Source of the DNA: Chthoniobacter flavus
GTDB lineage: Bacteria > Verrucomicrobiota > Verrucomicrobiia > Chthoniobacterales > Chthoniobacteraceae
Direction: 5' to 3'
Assembly (NCBI GenBank): GCA_945861435.1
Contig: CAMAUX010000049.1
Span: 1 to 41,201 of the forward strand
DNA length: 41,201 nt
Shown: positions 1 to 13,323 of the stretch, piece after piece
Numbering within the stretch: position 1 is the first letter of the stretch
Layout: every line of letters begins with the position of its first letter
The notes under the pieces: generated by a model
What the model saw: only the letters and a program-made list of their open reading frames with translations
The model's database searches: none
Told to the model about the DNA's origin: nothing
Position numbers and translations under genes: made by a program

Positions 1-21
1 AACCAAGAACCAAGAACCAAC
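1..21. repeat. Edge of a 7-bp tandem repeat (AACCAAG)
   Basis: The window opens with three 7-bp units: two identical AACCAAG and a third ending in C. The array is cut by the window edge, so its true length is unknown. It has the same period as the array at the right end of the window but a different sequence. No coding role is visible. Confidence 0.5.
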
Positions 22-40
22 AGACACCCCCAACTTCAGC

Positions 41-151
41 CATGCCGGAGGCATGAAAGCCAATAGCCGGTGGTGGACGCAGTCCGCAACGCGGACGAAG
101 GGAACCACCGGATCCCAGTTCCCCACGCGACGCGCCCCGGCATGGGGCGCG
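41..151. repeat. Intergenic palindrome cluster (three hairpins)
   Basis: Three inverted repeats lie in a row. The first is CATGCC at 41-46 with GGCATG at 50-55, loop of 3. The second is nested: CCGGTGGT at 67-74 pairs with ACCACCGG at 104-111, and inside it GTCCGC at 82-87 pairs with GCGGAC at 91-96. The third is CGCGCCCC at 131-138 with GGGGCGCG at 144-151. Such a chain of perfect stems between genes resembles dispersed palindromic intergenic elements. Only one copy is present in this window, so dispersal elsewhere in the genome is inference. No T-run follows any stem, so a terminator role is not supported. Confidence 0.5.
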
Positions 152-281
152 AGAAGGCCGACCATCCGAGGAAACCTTGCCTCTCCCTATCGGCTCCCGC
201 CGCTTGATGCCCGATGCATTGGCGTACCCGTCGTCCCTGAAAGTCAACCACCGCACCCCCACCACCAATCAGCATCACCGA

Positions 282-2004: not shown

Positions 2005-3303
2005 ATGAACTCCACCGACTTCGATCCACCCACGGGAGTCGCGAACGGTGCGGTGCTCATCTCCGTCGGGGGGTCGCCGGCACCTATCCTCAAGAGCCTG
2101 CGGAGCGAACGCGCAGCCCATGTGTGGTATTTCTGCTCGGCCGGCACCCGGGGCGTGGCTGAAGAAATCCATGCGCAGCTCGACTGGCACCCCAAGCCGC
2201 GGTTCATCGAGGTGGAACGCTACGAGGAGCTTGGCCCGTGTTATTCGGAGCTCCGTAGCTGGATTCCACAAATCCTCAGGGAAACGCGGGTGGCGGCAGC
2301 CGATGTCCGCGTGGATTACACCGGCGGGACGAAGACGATGAGTGCGGCTCTGGTTCTCGCGGCCACAGAACTCTTCAGCCGGTTCAGCTACGTGGGCTCG
2401 CTCCAGCGTGAAGGCGATGGGCTCGGAGTGACGGTGGATGGCAAAGAGCACATGCTTTATCAGGCCAATCCGTGGAGCGAACTCGCAGTGCGAGAACTCG
2501 AAAGAGCGCGGGATTTCTGGGATGCCCTCAACTTCAGGGCCGCGGAGGAGATGCTGCGGAAGATCGCCCGTCTCTCGGGTCGGAAGCTCCCGGCTGCTCT
2601 TGCGGGCGTGGCGCAGGGACTGGCTGCACGGCATCGGCTGGACTTCAAGGATGCGAGTCGGTGTCTGAGCAGCGTGCGTAGGGACTTGGCTCTCCTGCTG
2701 GATGCCGCACCAAAGCATCCGCTGCCAGAGGTGGTAAACGCGATGGTTTCGCTTTGCGACAAGTGCGCGCCCGAGAAGGAAGCCGGCCCCGAGCTACTGA
2801 GGGAGCTCTTGGACAATGCGCTGCGCACGGCGGGGCAGCACCGCTACGACGATGCGGCGGCGCGGCTCTACCGAGCGATGGAAATGCAGGGTCAGTTGTG
2901 GCTCACCGAAGGCACTGACGGGCTTTTTGTGAACGGGCGCTGTGTAGCGGCGCGTGCGTCCGAGATCCCTCCCGCCCTCGCAGCGCTGGAATGCTGCCGG
3001 CCGGATGCTGAGGGGGAGGTTAAGCTCAGCCTCGAACAGTGTTTCCGCGCTGTCCATGCGCTGGGCGACGGGCGCGTCACGGCCGTGATGGCCGATCTCG
3101 CCGTTGCCGGCCAAGGACGAGGCGCAAGCCGCTGGCGCAACGCCACACGCGAGCGCAACGAGGGCATCCTTGCCCACGGCGTAAAGCCTGTGGATGAGAG
3201 GGGCTTTGAGCGAATGAAGCACACCGCCGCCGAATTTCTCGGCTTCGACCTTTCCCATGAGGCTCATCCCCTGCCCCGCCTCGACCTGGCGTGGCTGCAA
3301 TAA
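2005..3303 (+). CDS. CRISPR-associated CARF-HEPN protein, Cas02710 (TIGR02710) family
   Basis: This 432-residue protein looks like a cyclic-oligoadenylate-activated ribonuclease of type III CRISPR immunity. The N-terminal CARF domain (about 15-160) shows the first-strand motif LISVGGSP at 19-25 and the signature DYTGGTKTMS at 104-113, which is very characteristic of the Cas02710 family. The middle (about 160-350) is alpha-helical. Near the C terminus RNEGILAHG places Arg384 and His391 six residues apart, the R-x(4-6)-H pattern of HEPN RNases, in the RN...LAHG form seen in this family. Known from the family: CARF domains bind cyclic oligoadenylate made by Cas10 and switch on the RNase. Neither cas10 nor an array is nearby, so activation in trans or by another nucleotide synthase is inference. 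The gene converges on the Cad1 gene with a 15-bp gap. Codon use is less biased to third-position C than in ppc or lpxB, which hints at transfer. Confidence 0.86.
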   Translation: MNSTDFDPPTGVANGAVLISVGGSPAPILKSLRSERAAHVWYFCSAGTRGVAEEIHAQLDWHPKPRFIEVERYEELGPCYSELRSWIPQILRETRVAAADVRVDYTGGTKTMSAALVLAATELFSRFSYVGSLQREGDGLGVTVDGKEHMLYQANPWSELAVRELERARDFWDALNFRAAEEMLRKIARLSGRKLPAALAGVAQGLAARHRLDFKDASRCLSSVRRDLALLLDAAPKHPLPEVVNAMVSLCDKCAPEKEAGPELLRELLDNALRTAGQHRYDDAAARLYRAMEMQGQLWLTEGTDGLFVNGRCVAARASEIPPALAALECCRPDAEGEVKLSLEQCFRAVHALGDGRVTAVMADLAVAGQGRGASRWRNATRERNEGILAHGVKPVDERGFERMKHTAAEFLGFDLSHEAHPLPRLDLAWLQ

Positions 3304-3318
3304 TCTCGCACCGAGGAG

Positions 3319-5298
3319 TCAGAGTGCGGCGATCTCCCCGGCGATCGCGGCAATCATTGGGTCGGTGCGCTTGATGAGATCTTCCCGTTCGTTGGCGGGC
3401 AGGAATGCGTGGCTGAAAGCCTGCTTCACGAGGCAGAGCGTTTCCCACCAGGTGAGCCCCGGGTTCATCCGTGCTGCCGCGAGGTATTCATCCGCAAGTG
3501 TGGTGCGGGAGATGCCTGGATTATCCGTGCACAGCGTGAGGGGGACGCCAAGCTCCATCAGGGCGCGCAAAGGATAATTGGCGTCCGAACCCGGATAGTC
3601 CGGATCGCGATACCCAACCACCTCCCGGTTGCTCGTCGGGCAAAGTTCAAGACAGATCCGCCGATCCCGGAATCTGCGGGCCAGATCCGGCGCTTGAGCA
3701 AGCGAGAGGCCGTGGCCGATTCGGTCGGCGTGCAAGTGATAGGCAGATTTCCAAATATTCGCGGCCGGCTGGCCTTCGCCGGCGTGGATGGTGATGGGCA
3801 GGCAGACCGAAAACGCTTCGTGAAAAAGCGGCGCGATCACTTCCGGATCCCCCTGCCCTTCGTCTCCCGCAAGGTCGATCCCTGCGATGAAGCTGCCATA
3901 CCGCTCCCGAGCATCAAGGGCCATACGGATCGTCTCTGTAATGCTCTCTTCCGAACGACGGTCGGCGATGACGATAACCCGAATCAGGGGATCCTGATCC
4001 ATGCGCCCCTCAATCAGGGCATCGTGAAACTCTGTGAGAAAGTGGGCGTGGTATTTTGCCGGACTGCAACGCACCTCGAGATACGCCAAGCCATCTCGGC
4101 GGCAACGGGCCCGGATCGCTTGAGCGCAGGCGCGGGTGGCCACGGGGTGCTGGAGGATCGTCGAACCCACGAGTGATCCCGGGTGCTCATAGGCCTTGAA
4201 GCCCCATGGGTGTCGGTCTCGCAGTGCGACCCGCGGCGCAGGATCCTGCCAGAGGACTTTCGCGATTTCCGAGGGAGAATGCTGGGAGAGAAGACAAGCC
4301 GCAGCATGAGCCCTCCGTAAACGATCGGGAAACGGCCATCGATCCCCACCCGGAAGTTGCGAGGCGGCCAGCCACGCCTCGGCATCAGCTGAGGCACGTG
4401 GGCGGTCCTTGTGGGGAAGTTGTTCCCACATGGCATTCCCAACCGCTACCTGCTCCGCGAGATCGAGCAAACCACCGAGGTGGCAGTGTAATTCTGCCTT
4501 GGGAAGCCTCGTGAGCCATTCGCGTGCAGTGGCCGAAACCGGCGTGTTGCGTAATCTATCAATGAGACCCGGGGCCATCCGGTAGAGGCTGCGCCAGTTC
4601 TCGTGGTGTTCCTGCCGAGCCACGGACGCGTGGAAATTGACGAGAAGGCTGCCACCATCTCTCTCCCGCTCTTCAAGATCGCGCCAAAGCCAACGATCTC
4701 CCGGTGGGCCGATGGTGCCCGGCTCAATAGGATAGCGCTCCGAAACGAAAGCGGGCTCAAGATCCAGCAACTCCCCGCGGGGAGCGCTACCCACCAAGAC
4801 AGGCTGAGGCAGAAGTTCCGGTGGAAGCGGAGACGCAAAATCATGCGCGTTCAGGACTTCAGACCGCACTCCCGGCGGCAGGATATGCACCATGACCCTG
4901 CATCCAAATGCCATGCCCGCCCTCTGCATGTCGGCAGACATGGTCTTGCGTCCCCCTGCAATGCAGAGCACCGCATCGGGCCCAGCCTTGAGAACGACCC
5001 GAAGGATGGTTTCCCGTATGAGCTCGATCTCCTCCTGGACCTGACCGTCCGTGGCCCGGGTACGAAACCAGCGCAGCGGAACCGGACGACCGATCCGCGC
5101 CCACCAACCCTCCACCTCCCGTTCGCCGGCGGCCCCACCCGTGGTCACGATCCACAGCTCCTCAGGTTCAGTAATGGGGCAGGGCCAATCGACAGGGACC
5201 ACCCCCAACGCATAAAGCGGGCAGCGGCCGGGCGCCACGAGCGCATACATTTCAGGAATGATCTGCCAGGTGAGGCCGAGGGTCGCGACGAGGATCAT
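3319..5298 (-). CDS. cad1: CRISPR-associated adenosine deaminase Cad1/CAAD (CARF-ADA fusion)
   Basis: This 659-residue two-domain protein has an N-terminal CARF domain (about 1-160) beginning MILVATLG and carrying LCIAGGRKTMS at 111-121, the ligand-binding loop type of CRISPR ancillary proteins. A linker follows (about 160-260), then a full adenosine deaminase TIM barrel (about 262-655). The metal and catalytic residues are present: His271 and His273 (ELHCHLGG), His505 and Glu508 (HAGE), His529 (RIGHG) and Asp592 (CTDNP). The CPTSN signature is at 553-557. Classical ADA has Asp-Asp at the last site; here the second is Asn593. Cad1 proteins with this architecture are reported to convert ATP to ITP when cyclic oligoadenylate binds, giving abortive-type phage defence. 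The gene is convergent with a Cas02710 gene and no cas10 is in the window. The start is the ATG at 5298; its ribosome site is weak. A purely metabolic ADA is unlikely because of the CARF domain. Confidence 0.9.
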   Translation of the reverse strand: MILVATLGLTWQIIPEMYALVAPGRCPLYALGVVPVDWPCPITEPEELWIVTTGGAAGEREVEGWWARIGRPVPLRWFRTRATDGQVQEEIELIRETILRVVLKAGPDAVLCIAGGRKTMSADMQRAGMAFGCRVMVHILPPGVRSEVLNAHDFASPLPPELLPQPVLVGSAPRGELLDLEPAFVSERYPIEPGTIGPPGDRWLWRDLEERERDGGSLLVNFHASVARQEHHENWRSLYRMAPGLIDRLRNTPVSATAREWLTRLPKAELHCHLGGLLDLAEQVAVGNAMWEQLPHKDRPRASADAEAWLAASQLPGGDRWPFPDRLRRAHAAACLLSQHSPSEIAKVLWQDPAPRVALRDRHPWGFKAYEHPGSLVGSTILQHPVATRACAQAIRARCRRDGLAYLEVRCSPAKYHAHFLTEFHDALIEGRMDQDPLIRVIVIADRRSEESITETIRMALDARERYGSFIAGIDLAGDEGQGDPEVIAPLFHEAFSVCLPITIHAGEGQPAANIWKSAYHLHADRIGHGLSLAQAPDLARRFRDRRICLELCPTSNREVVGYRDPDYPGSDANYPLRALMELGVPLTLCTDNPGISRTTLADEYLAAARMNPGLTWWETLCLVKQAFSHAFLPANEREDLIKRTDPMIAAIAGEIAAL

Positions 5299-5532
5299 GT
5301 TGGCAAATAAAACAGGGTAGAGACGGTGCCCTGCGAGAGGGCCACTCTGCGATACTATTAGATAGCAAGACTGTCAGCTCGGAGTTGGCGCGTCTCGAGT
5401 TGATCTTCCCATCCGGAGCCATCCGGGGCCTATGCTCTCAAACCTACGAGGACCCAGATACGGGCCAAATCGGTGGATCTGGGAGGATCAGGTTTTGGCG
5501 CCTAGGCGCACCGCTTTACACGGCTCTTTGCG

Positions 5533-6348
5533 GTGGTCCTATCCGCAATCTGGGAACGGCTCGACCTGCTTGGCCTCTTGAAAAGCTATGGGACAGCATC
5601 GGGGCGAATACGATTTGTCGGCGCGCTTCATGAAGCCTGGAAACAGCTCTGGCTCTGGGGGATGGCACCTCCGGCAACACATAACACCGCAGCAACAGCG
5701 CTGAGCTCATGGGACAGCATCCACCCGGGAAAGAAAATTCCGTTCGCAAAAGCTGCGATTGCCTCCACTCAAATTCCGCCGCCGTCTCACTGTGAAAGCC
5801 CCTTCAGAACCCTGGTTCCCCACGCGGTCACCTGCCAGCTCGACGACCTTCAAAACCTCGAGAACCAGCTCGCACGCAAGATCCGCGCTGAACTCTTGAA
5901 CCTCTTCCCTCAACCATCCGGGAGCTCCTGCCCACTCCCCAACCTCGAGACCACACTCAACCAAATCGGCGCCACTGCCTCCCACGACTCCCACACCGAT
6001 GCAGCCGATTTTGTGACCTCCGAAATCCCCGAGCAAATCACTGAACAAACCCTCACCCGCATCGCCACCTCCTCAGGGATCCTCGTTCTCGGCGAAACCG
6101 CATCCACGTGGACCTTGGGTGTGGGGGTTGCCATCGCCCTTGGTGCTGATTACCTCTGGGACTGGATCACGAAGCCCACCGCCGACATCGCGAGAGAGGT
6201 CGGCTTTTGCATTGAAGAACTCGGGAACACTGGCACCGAGGCACTCCAAAGCGAATGCAGCCGCCTTGTCTCCCAGCGCTGCGAGCAGAGGGAAGAAGCC
6301 ACCCAACGCCTCATCGCCCAACTCACTCCAATCTTGGGTGGCGCCTAA
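5533..6348 (+). pseudogene. Truncated, diverged paralogue of the next gene
   Basis: The open frame gives up to 271 residues from a GTG; an ATG at 5662 would give 228. From about residue 97 it aligns along its length with the protein at 6620-7639. Shared blocks are LQNLENQLARKIRAEL against LQSLENELAIKMRSEL, TSEIPEQITEQTLTRIATSS against TSEIAAQITVQILTRMAASS, STWTLGVG against STWSLGVG, and the C-terminal SECSRLVSQRCEQ against TECSRLASQRCEQ. The N-terminal membrane anchor and the first 140 or so residues of the paralogue have no counterpart, and the sequence before the homology resembles nothing I know. A frame at 5385-5633 overlaps it and starts at TTG without support. I call it a decayed tandem duplicate. 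It could still be expressed, because the conserved part has no stop. The 234 bases before it, up to the cad1 start, include an AT-richer patch but no promoter I can defend. Confidence 0.6.
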
Positions 6349-6619: not shown

Positions 6620-7639
6620 ATGAAAACCCACCTCCACAACGCCCCCTCCACCACCAGCAAGACCACTCACCCGCTCACGCAGGGAATCCTCCTCCTCGTT
6701 GCGGTGGTGCTCTGCGTGCTGCCTTTCAAGGCATCGCTTTTCAACACCGCAAACAACACCACCGCAGCCACACCCATCCACAGCCCGGAAACCCCCGCGC
6801 GCCCCACGGCCGAGGAGATCCGCCGCCGCATCGACCCCCTCCTCAGTGAAGCCCGCGTCGAGACGAAGGCCATCACCGCTCGCAACGCTCATGCGATCAA
6901 CGCCCTCATCCAAGGGCACTCCGCTGGTGTCCAAACCTTTGCTGAAGACGTCGTGTCCCCCTCAGGCAAATGGGCGTACATCAAAAGCAAACTCCCCGGC
7001 ACTTCTGCCGACGGACACGAGAAATTCATTCGCGAGAAATTCGCAAAACACATCTTCTCCGAGGTCGCCCTCAAGGAAGCTGTCTCCCAAGCCGTCTCCC
7101 GCCAGATCAAGGAACTCCAGAGCCTCGAAAACGAGCTCGCCATCAAGATGCGCAGCGAACTGGCGGCACTCACCCCCGACTCGGGAGACGCTGCTGTACA
7201 GCCCCCCGACTTCGAAGCCGCGCTCAAAGAGATCTGCAACGCCGCCTCATGGGACGCATGCAAAGGCATCGGCAATGTCGTGACCTCCGAGATCGCCGCG
7301 CAAATCACCGTGCAGATCCTCACCCGCATGGCCGCCTCTTCGGGCATCCTTGCCATTGGCGGCATCTCTTCCACGTGGAGCCTGGGGGTCGGATTCGTCG
7401 TGGCCATCTTTGTCGATTACGTCTTGGGACTCATCGACAACCCCGCTGCCGATATCGCGAAGGCCGTGTCAAAATCACTTGGGGAACTCGCGCGCACCGG
7501 CACCGACGCACTCGAAACCGAATGCAGCCGCCTTGCCTCCCAGCGCTGCGAGCAGTGGGAACAGGCCGCCCAACGCCTCATCGCCCAAGCCACTCAGCCA
7601 ACCCGCAGCGCCAGTCTCGCCTCCGTTCGCAATCCCTAA
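6620..7639 (+). CDS. Uncharacterised membrane-anchored coiled protein, cassette gene A
   Basis: The function is not recognised. The product is 339 residues. A short basic/polar N terminus precedes one strong hydrophobic segment (about 22-40), then a proline- and threonine-rich linker (45-65). A long charged helical region follows (65-185, including KELQSLENELAIKMRSEL). A second hydrophobic glycine-rich stretch (about 239-270, containing SSTWSLGVG and FVDYVLG) looks like a membrane hairpin, followed by a charged helical tail. Four cysteines fall in the C-terminal half. I chose the ATG at 6620 because it directly precedes the hydrophobic anchor; the open frame runs 501 bases further upstream through sequence with no similarity. 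It is followed after 43 bases by the helical-repeat protein, and a truncated paralogue lies just upstream, so the three probably form one cassette. The 271 bases before the start hold no other gene I can support. Confidence 0.65.
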   Translation: MKTHLHNAPSTTSKTTHPLTQGILLLVAVVLCVLPFKASLFNTANNTTAATPIHSPETPARPTAEEIRRRIDPLLSEARVETKAITARNAHAINALIQGHSAGVQTFAEDVVSPSGKWAYIKSKLPGTSADGHEKFIREKFAKHIFSEVALKEAVSQAVSRQIKELQSLENELAIKMRSELAALTPDSGDAAVQPPDFEAALKEICNAASWDACKGIGNVVTSEIAAQITVQILTRMAASSGILAIGGISSTWSLGVGFVVAIFVDYVLGLIDNPAADIAKAVSKSLGELARTGTDALETECSRLASQRCEQWEQAAQRLIAQATQPTRSASLASVRNP

Positions 7640-7682
7640 CCCGCTCCTCATCCCGTTCATCCCACCTCCACCCCACAAGGCC

Positions 7683-8555
7683 ATGCGCAAACTCCTCCTC
7701 CTCTCACTCACCTGCGCGGCAGCCCTCTCCACCGCTCCCCTCCACGCGGGGGTCCTCTCCACCCTCGGCCGCGAAACGACGGAGACAGCACTCCGCACCG
7801 GCGCGCGCATCGTCGGCAAGGAAACCGCAGAACAACTCAGCGAGAACGCCCTGCGCATGGTGCTCCGTCACGGAGAAGAATGCAGGCCCCTGCTCAAACG
7901 GGCCGGACCGCTTGGTGAACGCGCCCTCGAACAGGCCGGCGAACAAGCGCCGGACGTCATCCGCCTCTATGCGCGCTGCGGAGAAGAGACCCTCCACATC
8001 CTCTCGAAACCCAACAAACTCGCACTCTTCCTCAAGCACGGCGACTCAGCCGCCAGCGCACTCCTGCGCCACCCCGGCATCGCCGAAGACGTCATCACCA
8101 AATTCGGACCGCGCTCCGCGGAAGCTCTCATGCGCCTCAGCCAACGCGAGGCGCAGCGACTCGGCATCATGACGGCCGAAGGCTCTCTTGAGCGCATGGG
8201 CCGCACCGAGGAAGTCTTCGCGCTGATCACCCGCCTCGGCGATCGCGCCATGGAATTCATCTGGCGCAACAAAGGAGCCCTCGCCGTGGGCTCCACGCTC
8301 GCCCTCTTTCTCAGCAAACCGGAAGTCTTCATCGACGGCGTGCAGAAGCTCGTCGTCGAGCCCATGATCAAACCCATCGCAACGCAAGCCGCCGCCGCCA
8401 CCCCATGGGGTTGGTTGATCTCCGGCGGGCTCTTCCTCCTCTTCCTGCCCACCATCGTGCGCCGCGTGTCCGACGCCCGCAGCAGCGCAGTGCCGCAAAC
8501 CCCGGCCCCCCACGACACCCCCTCCGCTCCCATTCCCGAGACCGCCACCGTCTGA
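7683..8555 (+). CDS. Uncharacterised exported protein with glycine-punctuated helical repeats and two membrane segments, cassette gene B
   Basis: The function is not recognised. The product is 290 residues and starts with a signal peptide (MRKLLLLSLTCAAALSTAPL, cleavage near HAG). Residues about 40-165 form a chain of short amphipathic helices, each ending in Gly or a Gly pair: RHGEECRPLLKRAG, PLGERALEQAG, EQAPDVIRLYARCG, LALFLKHG, DSAASALLRHPG and IAEDVITKFG. This looks like a solenoid or scaffold. Two hydrophobic segments follow (about 196-211 and 240-260), then a short basic stretch and a Pro/Thr-rich tail. From memory, proteins of this type recur in Planctomycetes and Verrucomicrobia next to genes like the upstream one; I cannot confirm this here. 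The likely location is the inner membrane with the repeat domain in the periplasm. The ATG at 7683 is chosen because it starts the signal peptide. Confidence 0.65.
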   Translation: MRKLLLLSLTCAAALSTAPLHAGVLSTLGRETTETALRTGARIVGKETAEQLSENALRMVLRHGEECRPLLKRAGPLGERALEQAGEQAPDVIRLYARCGEETLHILSKPNKLALFLKHGDSAASALLRHPGIAEDVITKFGPRSAEALMRLSQREAQRLGIMTAEGSLERMGRTEEVFALITRLGDRAMEFIWRNKGALAVGSTLALFLSKPEVFIDGVQKLVVEPMIKPIATQAAAATPWGWLISGGLFLLFLPTIVRRVSDARSSAVPQTPAPHDTPSAPIPETATV

Positions 8556-8601: not shown

Positions 8602-8880
8602 ATGAAAAGACTCCTCAGCACCCTCCTCGCATGGGGCCTTGCGCACGCCTCAACCCATGCGAGCCCCATCTTCGGCAGCTGCCGCGGCGGCTCCTGCTCC
8701 ACCCGCAGTTCCTCCTCCGGCCTCCGATCCGCTTCAGGCCCCGGCATCAACCCGCTCACCGGCCGGCCTTCGGAATTTGCCCAAGTCAAAGAGCGCGCCT
8801 CGCTCGCCGCACGCATCCAGGCTGAAAAGGACGCCATCGGATTTTCCCACACGGAGAGGATGCTCCAGCGCCGCAGATAG
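8602..8880 (+). CDS. Small secreted Ser/Gly/Cys-rich protein, cassette gene C
   Basis: The product is 92 residues. A signal peptide (MKRLLSTLLAWGLAHASTHA) is followed by a short Ser-, Gly- and Cys-rich stretch (SPIFGSCRGGSCSTRSSSSG) with two cysteines, then a basic, helix-prone C terminus. The ATG at 8602 begins the signal peptide; a GTG at 8596 in the same frame would add only two residues. The gene sits 46 bases after the helical-repeat gene in the same direction, which argues that it is the last member of the cassette. I recognise no family. Its small size leaves some doubt that it is real, but the signal peptide, context and spacing favour it. Confidence 0.5.
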   Translation: MKRLLSTLLAWGLAHASTHASPIFGSCRGGSCSTRSSSSGLRSASGPGINPLTGRPSEFAQVKERASLAARIQAEKDAIGFSHTERMLQRRR

Positions 8881-9349
8881 TCCCCGCGCGGCGACGAAGG
8901 ATGCATTTCCGCCGCAGCCACGCGCCTTCTTCGAGCGCCTTCTTCGAGAGACTCTTCCTCCCTTTTTGACATTCCCGCCAAAGGACACAGCCCCTCGATG
9001 GCCCCTCCATCGCATTCCATTTACAAGTCCGCCACTGCGCCCGAAAAACGGCTCGCCGTCGGCGGCAGATCCCGCTCACTATAAGCGCTCTCGTATTTTC
9101 AAAGGGTCTGGCGCCGGTCGGCGTCTGGATTCCTGAGACGGCCAGAAAGTGCATGGCTGCTAATGTCTCTTTATAGCGACTTATCGGTCGCCATGTGTTG
9201 GTCGGCTCCGGGGCCAGTGCTCCGGAACCGCAGGTATATTCACAGCGCGTATGTGCGCAACCAAGGCCCGGCCCATGGATTCACCCCGTGAATCACGCAA
9301 GCCGGACCGAATACCGCAGTTCAACAACCACCCTTCACACCCACTTTTC
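8881..9349. other. Intergenic region, no supported gene
   Basis: These 469 bases lie between the secreted-protein cassette and the LRR-like gene. Overlapping frames on both strands are arginine/proline-rich and have no support. A 13-bp direct repeat occurs near the left end and is listed separately. A small inverted repeat (GCGAC at 9176-9180, GTCGC at 9187-9191) lies in a slightly AT-richer patch, and the area around 9140-9250 may hold the promoter of the next gene. I see no clear -35/-10 pair. Confidence 0.45.
8922..8947. repeat. Two tandem copies of a 13-bp unit
   Basis: GCGCCTTCTTCGA occurs at 8922-8934 and again, identically, at 8935-8947, just after the last cassette gene. A T-run follows at about 8964-8968, but no hairpin precedes it, so this is not a normal terminator. 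The unit length equals that of the four-copy repeat at 11894-11945, and both units start GCGCCT. Confidence 0.6.
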
Positions 9350-10633
9350 ATGTCCGACCCCATTCGCAACCCTTTCGAATTCCCCTTCCTCGATGAGAAA
9401 CATTTCGTCGAGCAAATGAAGGCCTACCACTTCCAGAAGTACCTGGAAAAGTGCCGCCAGATCCCATGCATCCCCTACGAGAAACGCACACCCTTGCACC
9501 GCTACGTCGAGAACTGCAGGTATCTCATGCGCAGCAAAACCATGCACCTGCATCCCGTTCGCGAGGTGATCAGCAGCCCCACCCTCGTAGCGCGCGCACG
9601 GAAGGAACTCGCGCTCCCTTGGGGCGAGTTAACCACCCGCTTTCTCGCCGTCGCCAGCCATCTCCCCGAACTCATTCACGAACTCGAGGACGCAGCTCTC
9701 AAGCAACTGCGGGGATGGCCGCAGTTTTATTTCCCCAACATTCGCGAGCTCTCCTGCCACACCGCAGAACTGGCGGGGCCAGGCCTCCTCTCCGTAAATC
9801 TGGAAAATATCCGCGACCTCCATCCCCACGCTCTGAGGCTCATCAGCGTCGATGCCCGTCTGCTCACGCTCGGACTCCCCACCCTCACCCACTCCCACGC
9901 ACACGCCATTGGCGTTCGTGTAAAGCATCTGATCACACACTCCCTTGCGCCAGGCACCGCGGGAATTCTCACCGACGTCAGCCCCCGCACCTATGAACTG
10001 GAAGAATTGCCCTCTCCGGCGGATTGCGTCGCCCTCGCCCACTGCGACTACGCGAGCAAATCCACGGTCATCATCGCCCCAAAATCCTCCGTGTACGATC
10101 CCACCCCCCCGAACCCTCTGGAGCTCTTCCGGGACTTCCAAGGAGCACTGCACTTCTACTCCGGCCAACTGACCCCGGACCAAACCGAAGTCTGCAGATC
10201 CCTTCGTGCCCACACCCTCTGCCTCGACAACCAATGCTGGCTCGACCCCAACGTCGCCGGCCACCTCGCAGAGTTTCAAGGCAGTGAACTCCACCTCGAC
10301 ACCCACATGTTCGAAGACTCTGCACTCGAAAACCTCCTCCACTTCCAAGGCACCCTCCATATCGGACTGTTTGATAAACTCAGCGACAGGGAGGCCCTCG
10401 CCCTCAGCTTCCACGAGCACCCCGTTCACCTCCCCGACGTGAACTCGCTCACCGACCGCCAGCTCAAAGCCCTGTGCGAGCGCCCCGCCCCCGTCTTCCT
10501 CCGGAGGGGATGCATCCAGTTCTCCCCCTCGCAGTTGGCATGGCTCGAGAACGCTGGCCAGACCGCCCTCCGCATCGAGCCGAACTACCACGACCCCTAC
10601 CGGGCACACTCGACCTCTCAGTCCGGCTCGTGA
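9350..10633 (+). CDS. Uncharacterised LRR-like repeat protein
   Basis: The product is 427 residues with no signal peptide or membrane segment, so it is probably cytoplasmic. The N-terminal half (1-260) is not recognised. From about 264 to 410 it has roughly six repeats of 22-24 residues, each a short beta-like stretch followed by a helix. Examples are QGSELHLDTHMFEDSALENL, QGTLHIGLFDKLSDREALAL and PVHLPDVNSLTDRQLKALC. The pattern (small-residue turn, LxL strand, LS/LT turn, helix) resembles degenerate leucine-rich repeats found in many planctomycete and verrucomicrobial proteins. Such domains usually bind other proteins. I chose the ATG at 9350 (MSDPIRNPFEF); the in-frame start at 9251 adds a low-complexity basic stretch. 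Only 48 bases separate it from fba, but fba has its own promoter candidate, so co-transcription is uncertain. Confidence 0.6.
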   Translation: MSDPIRNPFEFPFLDEKHFVEQMKAYHFQKYLEKCRQIPCIPYEKRTPLHRYVENCRYLMRSKTMHLHPVREVISSPTLVARARKELALPWGELTTRFLAVASHLPELIHELEDAALKQLRGWPQFYFPNIRELSCHTAELAGPGLLSVNLENIRDLHPHALRLISVDARLLTLGLPTLTHSHAHAIGVRVKHLITHSLAPGTAGILTDVSPRTYELEELPSPADCVALAHCDYASKSTVIIAPKSSVYDPTPPNPLELFRDFQGALHFYSGQLTPDQTEVCRSLRAHTLCLDNQCWLDPNVAGHLAEFQGSELHLDTHMFEDSALENLLHFQGTLHIGLFDKLSDREALALSFHEHPVHLPDVNSLTDRQLKALCERPAPVFLRRGCIQFSPSQLAWLENAGQTALRIEPNYHDPYRAHSTSQSGS

Positions 10634-10646
10634 GCTTTTGGAACGT

Positions 10647-10674
10647 TTGACTCACCCCCTCCTTCTGCTAAAGA
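10647..10674 (+). promoter_or_regulatory. Candidate promoter of fba, very close to the start codon
   Basis: TTGACT at 10647-10652 (5 of 6 consensus positions) and TAAAGA at 10669-10674 are 16 bases apart. The ATG is at 10682, so transcription starting 7-8 bases after the -10 box would give an almost leaderless message. The same bases (AAAGAG) could act as a weak Shine-Dalgarno if the transcript starts further upstream. Confidence 0.35.
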
Positions 10675-10681
10675 GCGGCCC

Positions 10682-11758
10682 ATGACTGCTACCAAGCGAT
10701 TCCGGGCCGGTGTCCTCTTTGGCGATGAAGTGACCGAACTCCTCAACTACGCCAAGTCCAGCGGGTTTGCCCTCCCCGCCGTCAACTGCATCGGCACCAC
10801 CTCCGTCAACGCCACGCTGGCCGCCGCGCGCGAGGTCAACTCGCCCACCATGATCCAGTTCTCCAACGGCGGCGCCCAGTTCTTCATCGGCAAGGGCGTC
10901 AGCAAGGACGCGCAGTTCGGTCCCATCCAAGGGGGCATCGCCGGCGCCCACTACGTCGACATCGCCGCCAAGGCCTACGGCGTCTCCGTCATCCTCAACA
11001 CCGATCACTGTGCCAAGAAGCTCCTCCCATGGGTCGACGGCATGCTCGCCGCCAGCGAGGAGCAGTTCGCCAAGACCGGCAAGCCCCTCTACAGCTCCCA
11101 CATGCTCGATCTCTCCGAGGAACCCCTCCACGAGAACCTCGAGATCTGCGCCAAATACTTCGAGCGCATGACCAAGATGGGCATGACCCTCGAAATCGAA
11201 CTCGGTGTCACCGGCGGCGAGGAAGACGGCGTCGACAACTCCGGCGTCGAAGAATCCAAGCTCTACACACAGCCCGAGGAAGTCGCCCTCGCCTACACCA
11301 CGCTGAGCGCCATCAGCCCCAACTTCACCATCGCTGCCGCCTTCGGCAACGTCCACGGCGTCTACAAACCCGGCAACGTGAAGCTCAAGCCCCCCATCCT
11401 CAAAAACTCCCAGGATCACATCGCCACAAAACTCGGCACCGGCCCCAACCCCGTGAACTTCGTCTTCCATGGCGGCTCCGGTTCCTCGCGCGAAGAGATC
11501 CGCGAGGCCATCAGCTACGGCGCCATCAAGATGAACATCGACACCGACATCCAGTGGGCCTTCTGGGACGGCATCCGCAATTACGAGGCCAAGAACCACG
11601 ACTATCTCCAGGGCCAGATCGGCAACCCCAAGGGCCCCGACGCACCCAACAAAAAGCAGTACGATCCGCGCGTCTGGCTGGGCGCAGCAGAGGACGCCGC
11701 CACCAAGCGCCTCCTCACCTCCTTCGAGGATCTCAACTGCGTGAACCGCAACGCCTGA
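10682..11758 (+). CDS. fba: Class II fructose-bisphosphate aldolase
   Basis: This is the cytoplasmic zinc enzyme that reversibly splits fructose 1,6-bisphosphate into dihydroxyacetone phosphate and glyceraldehyde 3-phosphate in glycolysis and gluconeogenesis. Its 358 residues match the usual size of the class IIA (FbaA-type) subgroup. Recognisable parts are FALPAVNCIGTTSVNATL near the N terminus, NTDHCAKK with Asp108 and His109 at the catalytic/zinc position, LEIELGVTGGEEDG with the helper glutamates, the phosphate-binding FVFHGGSGSS, and IKMNIDTDIQW near the C terminus. It is probably transcribed alone: a promoter candidate lies just before it and a strong terminator about 80 bases after it. 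Confidence 0.96.
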   Translation: MTATKRFRAGVLFGDEVTELLNYAKSSGFALPAVNCIGTTSVNATLAAAREVNSPTMIQFSNGGAQFFIGKGVSKDAQFGPIQGGIAGAHYVDIAAKAYGVSVILNTDHCAKKLLPWVDGMLAASEEQFAKTGKPLYSSHMLDLSEEPLHENLEICAKYFERMTKMGMTLEIELGVTGGEEDGVDNSGVEESKLYTQPEEVALAYTTLSAISPNFTIAAAFGNVHGVYKPGNVKLKPPILKNSQDHIATKLGTGPNPVNFVFHGGSGSSREEIREAISYGAIKMNIDTDIQWAFWDGIRNYEAKNHDYLQGQIGNPKGPDAPNKKQYDPRVWLGAAEDAATKRLLTSFEDLNCVNRNA

Positions 11759-11838
11759 TCCGCAGCGCCTGATCCGCCTCACGGCGCTCCACGGCACCCA
11801 TAATCCATGCTCCTCTGCAAAGAGGGGCACAGTCTCTG

Positions 11839-11882
11839 AAACCGGGCTCCATCGCCTTCGCGCGTGGAGCCCGGTTTGTTTT
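11839..11882 (+). terminator. Rho-independent terminator after fba
   Basis: AAACCGGGCTCC at 11839-11850 pairs perfectly with GGAGCCCGGTTT at 11866-11877 around a 15-base loop and is followed by TTTGTTTT. Orientation and position fit the end of the fba transcript. On the other strand the stem is not followed by a useful T-run, so it would not serve aroB well. Confidence 0.85.
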
Positions 11883-11893
11883 CGCAGCGCCAT

Positions 11894-11945
11894 GCGCCTC
11901 CATTGCGCGCCTCCATTGCGCGCCTCCATTGCGCGCCTCCATTGC
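11894..11945. repeat. Four perfect tandem copies of a 13-bp unit
   Basis: GCGCCTCCATTGC is repeated head to tail four times without a mismatch, starting 12 bases after the fba terminator and ending 119 bases before the aroB stop codon. The gap 11759-12064 (306 bases) holds this repeat and the terminator and no gene I can support. Such minisatellites can change copy number by slippage. No function is visible. Confidence 0.85.
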
Positions 11946-12064
11946 TTCGCGACTGAAGCGCCTCACTCCACGCGCACCGCACCGTCCCCCATGCAGCCAA
12001 CCCTGCCAACCCACTATGTCGTCTGCACCGTCCGCATCGTCCGCTCCAGCCTCCGTGGTCGCCG

Positions 12065-13201
12065 CTACACCAGCACCGAGCGCACCGCCGCGTGGACCGT
12101 GTCCCACGGCACGTCCTCCCGCTGCTGCCACTGACCAATCCCCGTCGGCAGCACGAACACGTTCCGCCCTTCGCGGAATTTCTTGTCCAGTTGCATGGTC
12201 CGCTCGATCCGCTCAAACAACCCCGGCGCATCCCGGTGACTGAGCGGCAGCCCTGCTCGCTCCAGCAAGCTCTGCAGGCGCGGCGCAAAATCCCGCGGCA
12301 CCATCCCCAGCGCAGCCGCGAGCCGTGTCGCCGCCATCATTCCCACCGCAATCGCCTCCCCGTGCGTGAGCGCGTAATCGGCCGAAAGCTCCAGCGCATG
12401 GCCCACCGTGTGCCCGAAGTTGAGCACGTTGCGGATCCCCTTCTTGTCGAATTCATCCTGCGCCACCACCGCCGCTTTCAAACGCACACACTGTGCCGCA
12501 ATGTCGATGAGCGCCGCGGGCTCACGCGCCAGCAACCGATCCAGATTGCGCGCCCCGTCGCCCTCCAGTTGTTCAAAAAGCGCGCGACTGCACACCGCCC
12601 CGTACTTGATCACCTCCGAGATCCCGCTGCGCAGCTCCCGATCGCTCAGCGTCCGCAGCAGCCCGAGGTCGCACACCACAAGCCGCGGCTGATTGAAGAT
12701 GCCCATGATGTTCTTCACCCCGCCGAAATTCACCGCCACCTTGCCTCCCACGCTCGAGTCGACCGCTGCCAGAAGCGTTGTTGGAATCTGCACAAAAGGC
12801 ACGCCGCGCCGGAACACACCGGCCGCGAATCCGCCCAGATCGCCCACCACACCACCGCCGAGCAGGAAGACGAGAGGCACCGCGCCCGCATCGGGAAACG
12901 CCTCGAGCATCGCCGAACAAACCTTGGTGAACTCCTCCCAATTCTTGGCCTCCTCAGTATTGGGAAGCTCGTGCCTCACCACACGCGTGAAGCCTGCACC
13001 GCGCAGCACCGCTTCCAACCGCTCAAAGTACAGCGCACCCACCTGCGCATTGGTGAGCACGAACGCATTCGTCTGCGTCATCCCCTGCTCGCGCAACAAC
13101 GGCCCAAGCCCCTCCAGCAGTCCATCCCCCAACAACACGGGATAGCTGCGGGGACCAAGTTCAACCTTCACGCGGACGGCACTAGAGGAGGTGGGGTTCA
13201 T
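12065..13201 (-). CDS. aroB: 3-dehydroquinate synthase
   Basis: This cytoplasmic NAD- and metal-dependent enzyme converts DAHP to 3-dehydroquinate, the second step of the shikimate pathway. The 378-residue protein shows the family signatures: FLLGGGVVGDLGGFAAG (about 112-128, NAD binding), QIPTTLLAAVDSSVGGK (about 138-154), SGISEVIKYG with metal-ligand Glu196, NFGHTVGHALE (metal-ligand His) and THGEAIAVGM (metal-ligand His). I chose the ATG at 13201, giving MNPTSSSAVRVKVELG with GGAGG/GAGGG sequence 10-20 bases upstream; the frame could extend to 13318 through non-conserved sequence. It is divergent from ppc with 122 bases between the starts, which must hold both promoters. The gene at 28057-29280 belongs to the same superfamily but to a different, non-shikimate branch. 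Confidence 0.95.
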   Translation of the reverse strand: MNPTSSSAVRVKVELGPRSYPVLLGDGLLEGLGPLLREQGMTQTNAFVLTNAQVGALYFERLEAVLRGAGFTRVVRHELPNTEEAKNWEEFTKVCSAMLEAFPDAGAVPLVFLLGGGVVGDLGGFAAGVFRRGVPFVQIPTTLLAAVDSSVGGKVAVNFGGVKNIMGIFNQPRLVVCDLGLLRTLSDRELRSGISEVIKYGAVCSRALFEQLEGDGARNLDRLLAREPAALIDIAAQCVRLKAAVVAQDEFDKKGIRNVLNFGHTVGHALELSADYALTHGEAIAVGMMAATRLAAALGMVPRDFAPRLQSLLERAGLPLSHRDAPGLFERIERTMQLDKKFREGRNVFVLPTGIGQWQQREDVPWDTVHAAVRSVLV

Positions 13202-13323
13202 GAAATGAGCCCTCCATCCTCCCGCACCCACGCGCTCGGGGCAACCCGCAATCCTCAAATCAGGACTCCACCCGATCGCAGACTTGCACGTCGCCCGCAA
13301 GCCCTCCACATAAGACACCCGGC

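What the first reader, a model, noticed from the sequence alone, without database searches (positions are those of the whole stretch)
2005..5298. Orphan pair of cyclic-oligoadenylate effectors: Cas02710-type CARF-HEPN next to Cad1 (CARF-adenosine deaminase)
Two CARF proteins with different output domains, an RNase and a nucleotide deaminase, are convergent with a 15-bp gap. There is no cas10, cas5/7, cas6, cas1/2 or array within the window on either side. Both share the loop GG(T/R)KTMS. A two-effector module separated from type III machinery could be driven in trans by a distant Cas10, or by another cyclic nucleotide synthase. It would combine RNA cleavage with ATP-to-ITP conversion, two growth-arrest routes from one signal.
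Basis: partly seen in the sequence, partly recalled or inferred. Interest (0 to 1): 0.88.

Follow-up and report, generated by a model that had tools for sequence, protein, structure and literature searches.

The report
Detached pair of CRISPR type III effectors
Two ordinary antiviral effector genes, an RNA-cutting one and one that turns ATP into ITP, sit side by side in a bacterial genome in which the enzyme that normally switches them on was not found; this is a new example of a known situation, not a new kind of system.

Summary
Window 2005-3303(+) is an intact TIGR02710 CARF-HEPN (Csm6-like) gene; 3319-5298(-) is an intact Cad1 (CARF-adenosine deaminase) gene. They converge with a 15-bp gap, both CARF loops read GG(T/R)KTMS, and the catalytic residues checked are kept. 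The window is a whole 41-kb contig. The assembly (5.35 Mb, 96% complete) gave no match to Cas10, RAMP, SMODS or mCpol profiles; the only cas locus my searches found is type II (Cas9). So the pair is detached here.

The novelty largely dissolves. Both belong to known type III effector families. Of 75 other Cad1 loci, 40 have type III core genes in the stretch held, and 7 a CARF-HEPN-like gene there, all on Cad1's strand. Cad1 genes away from Cas10 recur, and loci with and without core genes are mixed on the Cad1 tree: no special orphan lineage. Published work already reports co-resident Csx1 and Cad1, Cad1 in genomes without type III, and orphan CARF proteins.

The convergent order is unique in my sample and the genes look separately acquired. 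Whether Cas10 was lost or is unassembled is unresolved; such MAG absences can be false. No evidence for another cyclase was found.

The parts
2005..3303 (+). CARF-HEPN ribonuclease gene, TIGR02710 / Csm6-like, 432 aa (P0001)
   Evidence: AF2 model best PDB match Thermus thermophilus Csm6, E 3.3e-11
2323..2343 (+). CARF loop GGTKTMS (residues 107-113)
   Evidence: G108, T109, K110, M112 and S113 invariant in 7 aligned proteins
3154..3177 (+). HEPN active-site motif R384-X6-H391
   Evidence: R384 and H391 invariant in the alignments
3304..3318 (.). 15-bp gap between the two convergent stop codons
3319..5298 (-). Cad1 gene, CARF-adenosine deaminase, 659 aa (P0002)
   Evidence: AF2 model best PDB matches solved Cad1 structures, best E 6.9e-37
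4936..4956 (-). CARF loop GGRKTMS (residues 115-121); K118 aligns with TaqCad1 K106 and BabCad1 K104
   Evidence: HMMER alignment (numbering counted off it); roles of K106/K104
3349..4515 (-). Deaminase domain with H271, H273, H505, E508, H529, D592, N593 all kept
1..275 (.). Dispersed repeat at the contig end; first 149 bases identical to the last 149 of contig C42
282..1424 (-). Left neighbour: lactonase-type 7-bladed beta-propeller protein, no defence-family match
   Evidence: PF10282, 141.6 bits; no PADLOC hit

Best explanation
These are two ordinary type III CRISPR ancillary effectors that have become detached from their cyclic-oligoadenylate synthase. Each was probably acquired from type III loci, the two separately, and they now lie convergently in a Cas9-bearing Verrucomicrobiota genome that lacks Cas10. 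If cA4 (or cA6) were present, the CARF dimer of the first would open its HEPN RNase and the CARF domain of the second would switch on ATP-to-ITP deamination, arresting growth. At present they are most likely idle or on stand-by, retained relics or recent arrivals that work only when a type III system is also present. Shown here: families, kept motifs, and no Cas10, RAMP, SMODS or mCpol match in the assembly. Inferred: the ligand, the activities, the separate acquisition, and that the absence is real.
For: Family calls and folds. Motifs kept; P0001 keeps 41 of 43 and P0002 68 of 70 positions that are invariant in the other 6 and 14 aligned proteins, as its peers do. No Cas10, RAMP, SMODS or mCpol match in the genome; the one Cas1 match belongs to a type II locus: Cas9 142.5 bits (cut-off 100), Cas1, Cas2, 22 repeats. 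Neither gene was found in the 3 congeners held, one of them 86% complete. Separate origins: P0002 pairs with a Planctomycetota Cad1 (support 100) inside a 26-row clade of which 20 rows are Pseudomonadota, whereas the closest relatives found of P0001 are two genomes of the window's own order (55%, 51%) and a Limisphaera MAG (54%). Both families are type III ancillary genes elsewhere: core genes in the stretch for 40 of 75 other Cad1 loci (duplicates removed as). Core/no-core labels are not clustered on the Cad1 tree (22 changes against 24.4 in shuffles). The closest relative of P0001 (in G052) is also in a genome without Cas10 or RAMP match.
Against: The genome is a 105-contig assembly, 96.09% complete, and the pair lies 2 kb from a contig end. 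11 of the 12 other Cad1 genomes of the phylum set have a Cas10 match over the cut-off. Locus L161 carries Cad1 beside a truncated Cmr1-like ORF at a contig edge (76 bits with my own profile; no NCBIfam or Pfam hit) in a genome that scored no RAMP, so such absences can be false. The intact state of both genes argues against a long-abandoned relic. Codon usage and G+C do not mark the pair as foreign.
Confidence: 0.52

Rival explanations
1. A type III locus with Cas10 does exist in this organism but lies in the unassembled or unbinned part of the genome; the pair is an ordinary effector set driven in trans or from just beyond the contig end.
For: Completeness 96.09% in 105 contigs and a repeat at the left contig end. 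A probable false absence is seen at L161 (its Cmr1-like call rests on my own profile alone). Isolated Cad1 loci with a Cas10 in the genome but outside the stretch held exist: L137, L145, L157 (3 of 4 tested). 11 of the 12 other Cad1 genomes of the phylum set have a Cas10 match over the cut-off; the twelfth (G450) has only a 17.6-bit match to positions 53-131, of the kind I discount elsewhere.
Against: Neither Cas10 nor any RAMP gene is found, so the whole operon would have to be missing. Among the repeat matches scored (40 of 277 first-look candidates), the end of C42 is the only exact partner of the contig end (149 identical bases; the others at most 93%), and the last 20 kb of C42 show no ORF matching the Cas, CARF and Cad1 profiles.
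Confidence: 0.33
2. Another, undescribed or unrecognised, cyclic-oligoadenylate synthase (not Cas10) drives the pair, making it a CRISPR-independent two-effector alarm.
For: Loops and catalytic residues are kept although no Cas10 is found. A second genome of the order (G052) has the closest P0001 relative next to a ring nuclease gene (TIGR02584, 192.2 bits), also without Cas10 or RAMP match.
Against: No SMODS or mCpol match. No synthase family recognised among the neighbours scanned, though several of them have no family match at all. No clade of Cas10-free Cad1. G052 shares the CARF-HEPN gene but is not among the genomes with a match to P0002.
Confidence: 0.07
3. The CARF domains have drifted to another ligand or to constitutive low activity, as reported for the orphan CARF protein VC1899, which is not controlled by cA4.
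For: Precedent: VC1899 is an orphan CARF protein with weak RNase activity not regulated by cA4 (PMC7969007, passage in the Discussion).
Against: Unlike what is reported for VC1899, the binding loop with its lysine is kept in both proteins.
Confidence: 0.06

Closest known systems
TaqCad1 plus TaqCsx1 in the type III-B locus of Thermoanaerobaculum aquaticum (PMC12669630)
   Same: One CARF-HEPN RNase and one CARF-adenosine deaminase in one genome; K118, G275, H505, D592 and N593 of P0002 align with TaqCad1 K106, G264, H461, D548 and N549 (alignment, numbering counted off it; roles).
   Different: There the genes lie in a type III-B locus with adaptation genes; here no type III gene is found and the two genes converge.
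Cad1 / CAAD (Baca 2024, PMC11645235; LngCAAD as cited in PMC12669630)
   Same: Full-length CARF5-ADA architecture; fold matches 9c67, 8z3k and 9mmw.
   Different: About 21-26% identical to the solved full-length ones; no type III locus; no NUDIX-like neighbour, which 27 of 75 other Cad1 loci have. I recall, without having read it here, that Li et al. 2025 showed such a NUDIX enzyme acting on ITP.
TIGR02710 / Thermus thermophilus Csm6-type CARF-HEPN RNases
   Same: Family score over cut-off, RX6H motif, fold. TtCsm6 is cA4-activated (PMC10897365, abstract).
   Different: No Cas10 found in the genome.
Orphan CARF proteins: VC1899 (PMC7969007) and orphan Csx15 (PMC13148439)
   Different: VC1899 lacks a cA4 site; here two effectors together keep the binding loops.

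Membership tests
TIGR02710 CARF-HEPN (Csm6/Csx1-like) | Score over the curated cut-off of the family model | tested here: met
   142.1 bits against 83.9
TIGR02710 CARF-HEPN (Csm6/Csx1-like) | HEPN motif R-X4-6-H | tested here: met
   R384-X6-H391, invariant in 7 sequences
TIGR02710 CARF-HEPN (Csm6/Csx1-like) | Csm6 6H linker domain between CARF and HEPN | tested here: inconclusive
   27.4 bits, cut-off 27.6; helices 156-254 in the model
TIGR02710 CARF-HEPN (Csm6/Csx1-like) | cA4- or cA6-dependent RNase activity | not testable with these tools
   needs purified protein
Cad1 (CARF-adenosine deaminase) | CARF5 domain fused to adenosine deaminase over the full length | tested here: met
   619 bits over residues 2-650; fold match to Cad1 structures, best E 6.9e-37
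Cad1 (CARF-adenosine deaminase) | Metal-binding and catalytic residues, and the ATP-contacting residues 264 and 549 of TaqCad1 | tested here: met
   H271, H273, G275, H505, E508, H529, D592, N593 kept
Cad1 (CARF-adenosine deaminase) | cOA-activated ATP-to-ITP conversion as a hexamer | not testable with these tools
   needs purified protein
Type III CRISPR-Cas system | Cas10 in the genome | tested here: not met
   0 matches to PF22335 in G000, in an assembly of 96.09% completeness
Type III CRISPR-Cas system | RAMP subunits in the genome | tested here: not met
   0 matches to PF03787
CBASS (SMODS cyclase) | SMODS nucleotidyltransferase in the genome | tested here: not met
   0 matches to PF18144; cyclases outside this model not tested
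mCpol cyclase system | mCpol domain | tested here: not met
   0 matches to PF18182 in G000; in the controls this model rang only below its cut-off, so the test is weak

The most novel reading that the evidence does not exclude
A bacterium in which Cas9 is the only CRISPR system found keeps a working two-effector cyclic-oligoadenylate alarm (RNA cleavage plus ATP deamination) fed by a synthase that is neither Cas10, SMODS nor mCpol, or by the type III system of an incoming mobile element.
Probability: 0.07. Interest if true: 0.78.

Novelty: new member of a known kind. Interest (0 to 1): 0.3.

Why it matters
It is a clear example of type III effectors without a visible Cas10, in a genome with Cas9, and it adds to the question of how often such effectors are shared in trans, held in reserve or abandoned. 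It also shows how easily 'orphan' effectors can be over-called in metagenome assemblies: in one control locus a truncated type III-like ORF lies at the contig edge beside Cad1 in a genome that scores no RAMP gene. A closed genome or one binding assay would decide the matter.

Tried and rejected
Plain adenosine deaminases: searches returned matches in 45 of 147 and 164 of 387 genomes, but most listed matches cover only the deaminase half. I kept those with CARF coverage or a broken or contig-cut CARF-ADA: 11 other genomes among the matches listed (that list was cut), plus G116 (a match of 28.9 bits to query residues 110-279, whose contig L074 then passed the Cad1 profile).

Weak Cas10 matches: many genomes show 17-29-bit matches, mostly to positions 50-132 of PF22335. 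I read these as GGDEF-type cross-matches (several genomes have many copies) and counted Cas10 only from 40 bits up: 15 of 27 genomes. The tool's own count over its cut-off is 17 of 27; the two extra are G532 and G547. That reading is mine and was not tested further. By the same rule G450 (17.6 bits) does not count. G546 (the genome of L173) has a 23-bit match to positions 1-45 only, which may be a fragment of a real Cas10.

A dedicated Cas10-free Cad1 lineage: not supported by the tree (quick method, SH-aLRT only; two rows under 540 aa, L070 and L187, were left out). The core/no-core labels depend on how much of each contig is held, so they understate 'core'; and one 'core' label, L173, rests on a 26-bit match to my own Cmr1 profile.

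Foreign composition: G+C and codon usage do not single out the pair. Plasmid carriage: no plasmid match for P0001, none covering 80% of P0002. Viral contigs: no relative of P0002 (which reaches close relatives only); P0001 was not searched there.

The Cmr1-like ORFs at the edges of L161 (76 bits) and L173 (26 bits) were called with my own profile; neither has an NCBIfam or Pfam hit. Only L161 is used as the false-absence control.

The profiles were built by me from 1 to 8 sequences of these loci, labelled by position and resemblance. Single seeds of the Cas10, Cas1, NE0113, Card1-like and NUDIX-like sets and most of the TIGR02710 set were checked against libraries; the two seeds of the second CARF-HEPN set are weaker (L065 scores 68.3 bits, under the TIGR02710 cut-off of 83.9; L069 was not scanned), and the Csm, Cmr and Cas6 seeds were not checked before use.
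Full report
1. What is there. The window is the whole contig C49 (41,201 bases) of an unnamed assembly, G000, of 5.35 Mb in 105 contigs, 96.09% complete, 0.24% contaminated. It belongs to the same phylum as a Kiritimatiellota MAG and the same class as Verrucomicrobiota bacterium JB023, because G257 and G378 share contigs with those named records (inferred from equal contig lengths and places). Two intact ORFs converge: 2005-3303(+), 432 aa, and 3319-5298(-), 659 aa, 15 bp apart.

2. Identity of the first gene (P0001). It scores 142.1 bits to TIGR02710 (cut-off 83.9), 69.3 bits to the Csm6 HEPN domain (cut-off 27) and 27.4 bits to the Csm6 6H domain, just under its cut-off of 27.6. The CARF loop is GGTKTMS and the HEPN motif R384-X6-H391; G108, T109, K110, M112, S113, R384 and H391 are invariant among 7 aligned proteins. 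No PDB sequence matched at E 0.001, but the AlphaFold2 model (mean pLDDT 77.4, 5-row alignment) has Thermus thermophilus Csm6 as best PDB match, E 3.3e-11, over the full length. TtCsm6 is a cA4-activated RNase (PMC10897365, abstract seen).

3. Identity of the second gene (P0002). It scores 619 bits to the PADLOC model CARF5--CARF_ADA over residues 2-650. The HMMER alignment with solved Cad1 proteins puts K118 at TaqCad1 K106 and BabCad1 K104, the lysine needed for cA4 binding in the former (PMC12669630 section 7) and part of the pocket in the latter (PMC11645235 section 8). H271, H273, G275, H505, E508, D592 and N593 align with TaqCad1 H260, H262, G264, H461, E464, D548 and N549; I counted this numbering off the alignment, and the roles of G264, H461, D548 and residue 549 are in passages of PMC12669630. 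The model (mean pLDDT 86.8, 15 rows) matches Cad1 structures, best E 6.9e-37.

4. Are the genes decayed? Of the positions invariant in the other aligned proteins, P0001 keeps 41 of 43 and P0002 68 of 70, which is the range of their peers. I see no sign of decay.

5. Is there a signal source? In G000 there was no match to the Cas10 palm domain, to RAMPs, to SMODS or to mCpol (in the control genomes this last model rang only below its cut-off, so it is a weak test). Cas1 gave one match, on C5, and it belongs to a type II locus: Cas9 142.5 bits to TIGR01865 (cut-off 100), Cas1 96.9 (71.7), Cas2 33.1 (24.5), and 22 repeat copies mostly 68 bases apart. Type I genes other than Cas1 were not searched for. 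By contrast 11 of the 12 other Cad1 genomes of the phylum set have a Cas10 match over the cut-off; the twelfth (G450) has one of 17.6 bits, of the kind I discount below.

6. How firm is the absence? Left of the pair only 2 kb is held. The contig starts in a dispersed repeat with more than 60 matches in the genome. Among the matches scored (40 of 277 first-look candidates) the end of C42 is identical over 149 bases, the others at most 93%, and the identity runs exactly from the start of C49 to the end of C42. C42 is therefore the likely left neighbour, and its last 20 kb hold no ORF that matches the Cas, CARF and Cad1 profiles. That favours true absence. Against it, MAG absence can be false: L161 has Cad1 beside a truncated Cmr1-like ORF at the contig edge (76 bits with my own profile; no library hit) in a genome that gave no RAMP match.

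7. What do the families do elsewhere? This is not a random sample. Type III core genes (Cas10, Csm or Cmr) lie in the stretch held for 40 of 75, one of them (L173) on a 26-bit match. Of the 35 without, only 5 have at least 5 kb on both sides (L124, L137, L145, L157, L176), so most are uninformative. A CARF-HEPN gene like TIGR02710 lies in the stretch in 7 of 75 (L118, L120, L122, L173, L072, L065, L069), always on Cad1's strand; in L120, L122 and L072 it is directly adjacent. Of these, L120, L122, L173 and L072 score over the TIGR02710 cut-off, L065 under it, and L118 and L069 were not scanned. None is convergent. The convergent order of the window is thus unique in this sample. In the window's own kin, TIGR02710 matched 4 of 43 genomes, 3 over the cut-off including G000 itself (none of the 14 controls rang).

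8. Effectors away from Cas10. One search examined 27 genomes, most chosen because their Cad1 stretch showed no Cas10, plus L119, L122 and L123 as positive controls: 15 of 27 have a Cas10 match of at least 40 bits (17 of 27 over the tool's cut-off). Of the four isolated loci tested, three (L137, L145, L157) have a Cas10 in the genome outside the stretch held and one (L124, Halochromatium roseum) has no match of 40 bits; L176 was not tested. Of the 12 genomes without a 40-bit match, 4 have RAMPs and 8 do not. Detached Cad1 genes thus recur, with the assembly caveat above. On a tree of 74 Cad1 proteins the core/no-core label changes 22 times against 24.4 in shuffles, so there is no sign of a separate orphan lineage.

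9. Origins. P0002 pairs with a Planctomycetota Cad1 (L117; 51%; support 100), whose gene is followed by a Cas1-like and preceded by a NUDIX-like ORF by my profiles (the latter has no Pfam hit), inside a 26-row clade of which 20 rows are Pseudomonadota. P0001 has its closest relatives found in the window's order (L113 55%, L112 51%) and in Limisphaera (L173 54%). The three congeners held gave no match to either gene. Separate acquisition is the simplest reading (inference).

10. Mechanism. By homology, cA4 (or cA6) would bind the CARF dimers and release RNA cleavage by P0001 and ATP-to-ITP conversion by P0002. Co-resident effectors typically share one activator (PMC11229360, abstract and passages), and TtCsm6 is activated by cA4 and TaqCad1 prefers it, so cA4 is my guess for both; BabCad1 prefers cA6. 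The window lacks the NUDIX-like gene that adjoins Cad1 on the same strand in 27 of 75 loci, so ITP would probably accumulate rather than be broken down further (inference).

11. Comparison with what is known. Csx1 and Cad1 in one type III-B locus, with Cad1 acting as ring nuclease on the shared signal, is published (PMC12669630, sections 5 and 7 read). Baca et al. state that over 70% of Cad1 homologues are in genomes with type III systems (PMC11645235, section 7 read), so a minority are not. Effectors served by another locus of the genome are proposed by PMC11229360 (passages). Orphan CARF proteins are reported in PMC7969007 and PMC13148439 (passages). Searches for papers on Cas10-less or orphan CARF effectors listed no paper whose title or abstract start describes a convergent CARF-HEPN/Cad1 pair; this covers only the listed papers of the open library searched.

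12. Verdict. A sound observation with a partly sound reading: a new example of detached type III effectors. The strange part, what activates them, cannot be settled from a fragmented assembly. Interest 0.3.

Noticed in passing
27 of 75 Cad1 loci, e.g. L066:3083-3682, L064:567-1214, L173:4741-5409, L145:12120-12791: A roughly 200-aa gene with a RExxEE Nudix-type motif directly adjoins Cad1 on the same strand (24 downstream, 3 upstream; most overlap the Cad1 ORF by a few bases). Pfam NUDIX over its cut-off in 4 of 7 scanned, just under in 2, none in 1. Probably the ITP-hydrolysing partner I recall from Li et al. 2025 (not read here). The window lacks it.
   Followed up: partly
G000:C5, about 123860-129869 (L110, L213): Type II locus of the same genome: Cas9 (1114 aa; also 165 bits to Cas9d, under that model's cut-off), Cas1, Cas2 and 22 repeats, the only cas locus my searches found.
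   Followed up: partly
L113 (G052:C56) 2739-5293: The closest relative found of P0001 lies next to a ring nuclease gene (TIGR02584, 192.2 bits) in another 96%-complete genome of the order with no Cas10, RAMP, SMODS or mCpol match.
   Followed up: partly
window 1-275: Dispersed repeat of roughly 120-240 bases with more than 60 matches over many contigs of the genome, some in local clusters; a likely cause of contig breaks.
   Followed up: no
window 5493-5822: Stretch repeated at 83-91% identity on contigs C14, C43 and C57; the two neighbouring ORFs scanned (5533-6348, 7350-8555) have no Pfam or PADLOC hit.
   Followed up: no
L124 (Halochromatium roseum) 8829-13319: Cad1 flanked by a Cas6-like ORF (my own labelling, no NCBIfam hit) and a TIGR02619 CRISPR-associated protein, in a genome with no RAMP match and no Cas10 match above 25.5 bits.
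   Followed up: no
L070 (G294) and L071 (G165): cad1 reading frames interrupted by stops in stretches that hold Cmr-type ORFs; Cad1 may be lost repeatedly, or these are assembly errors.
   Followed up: no
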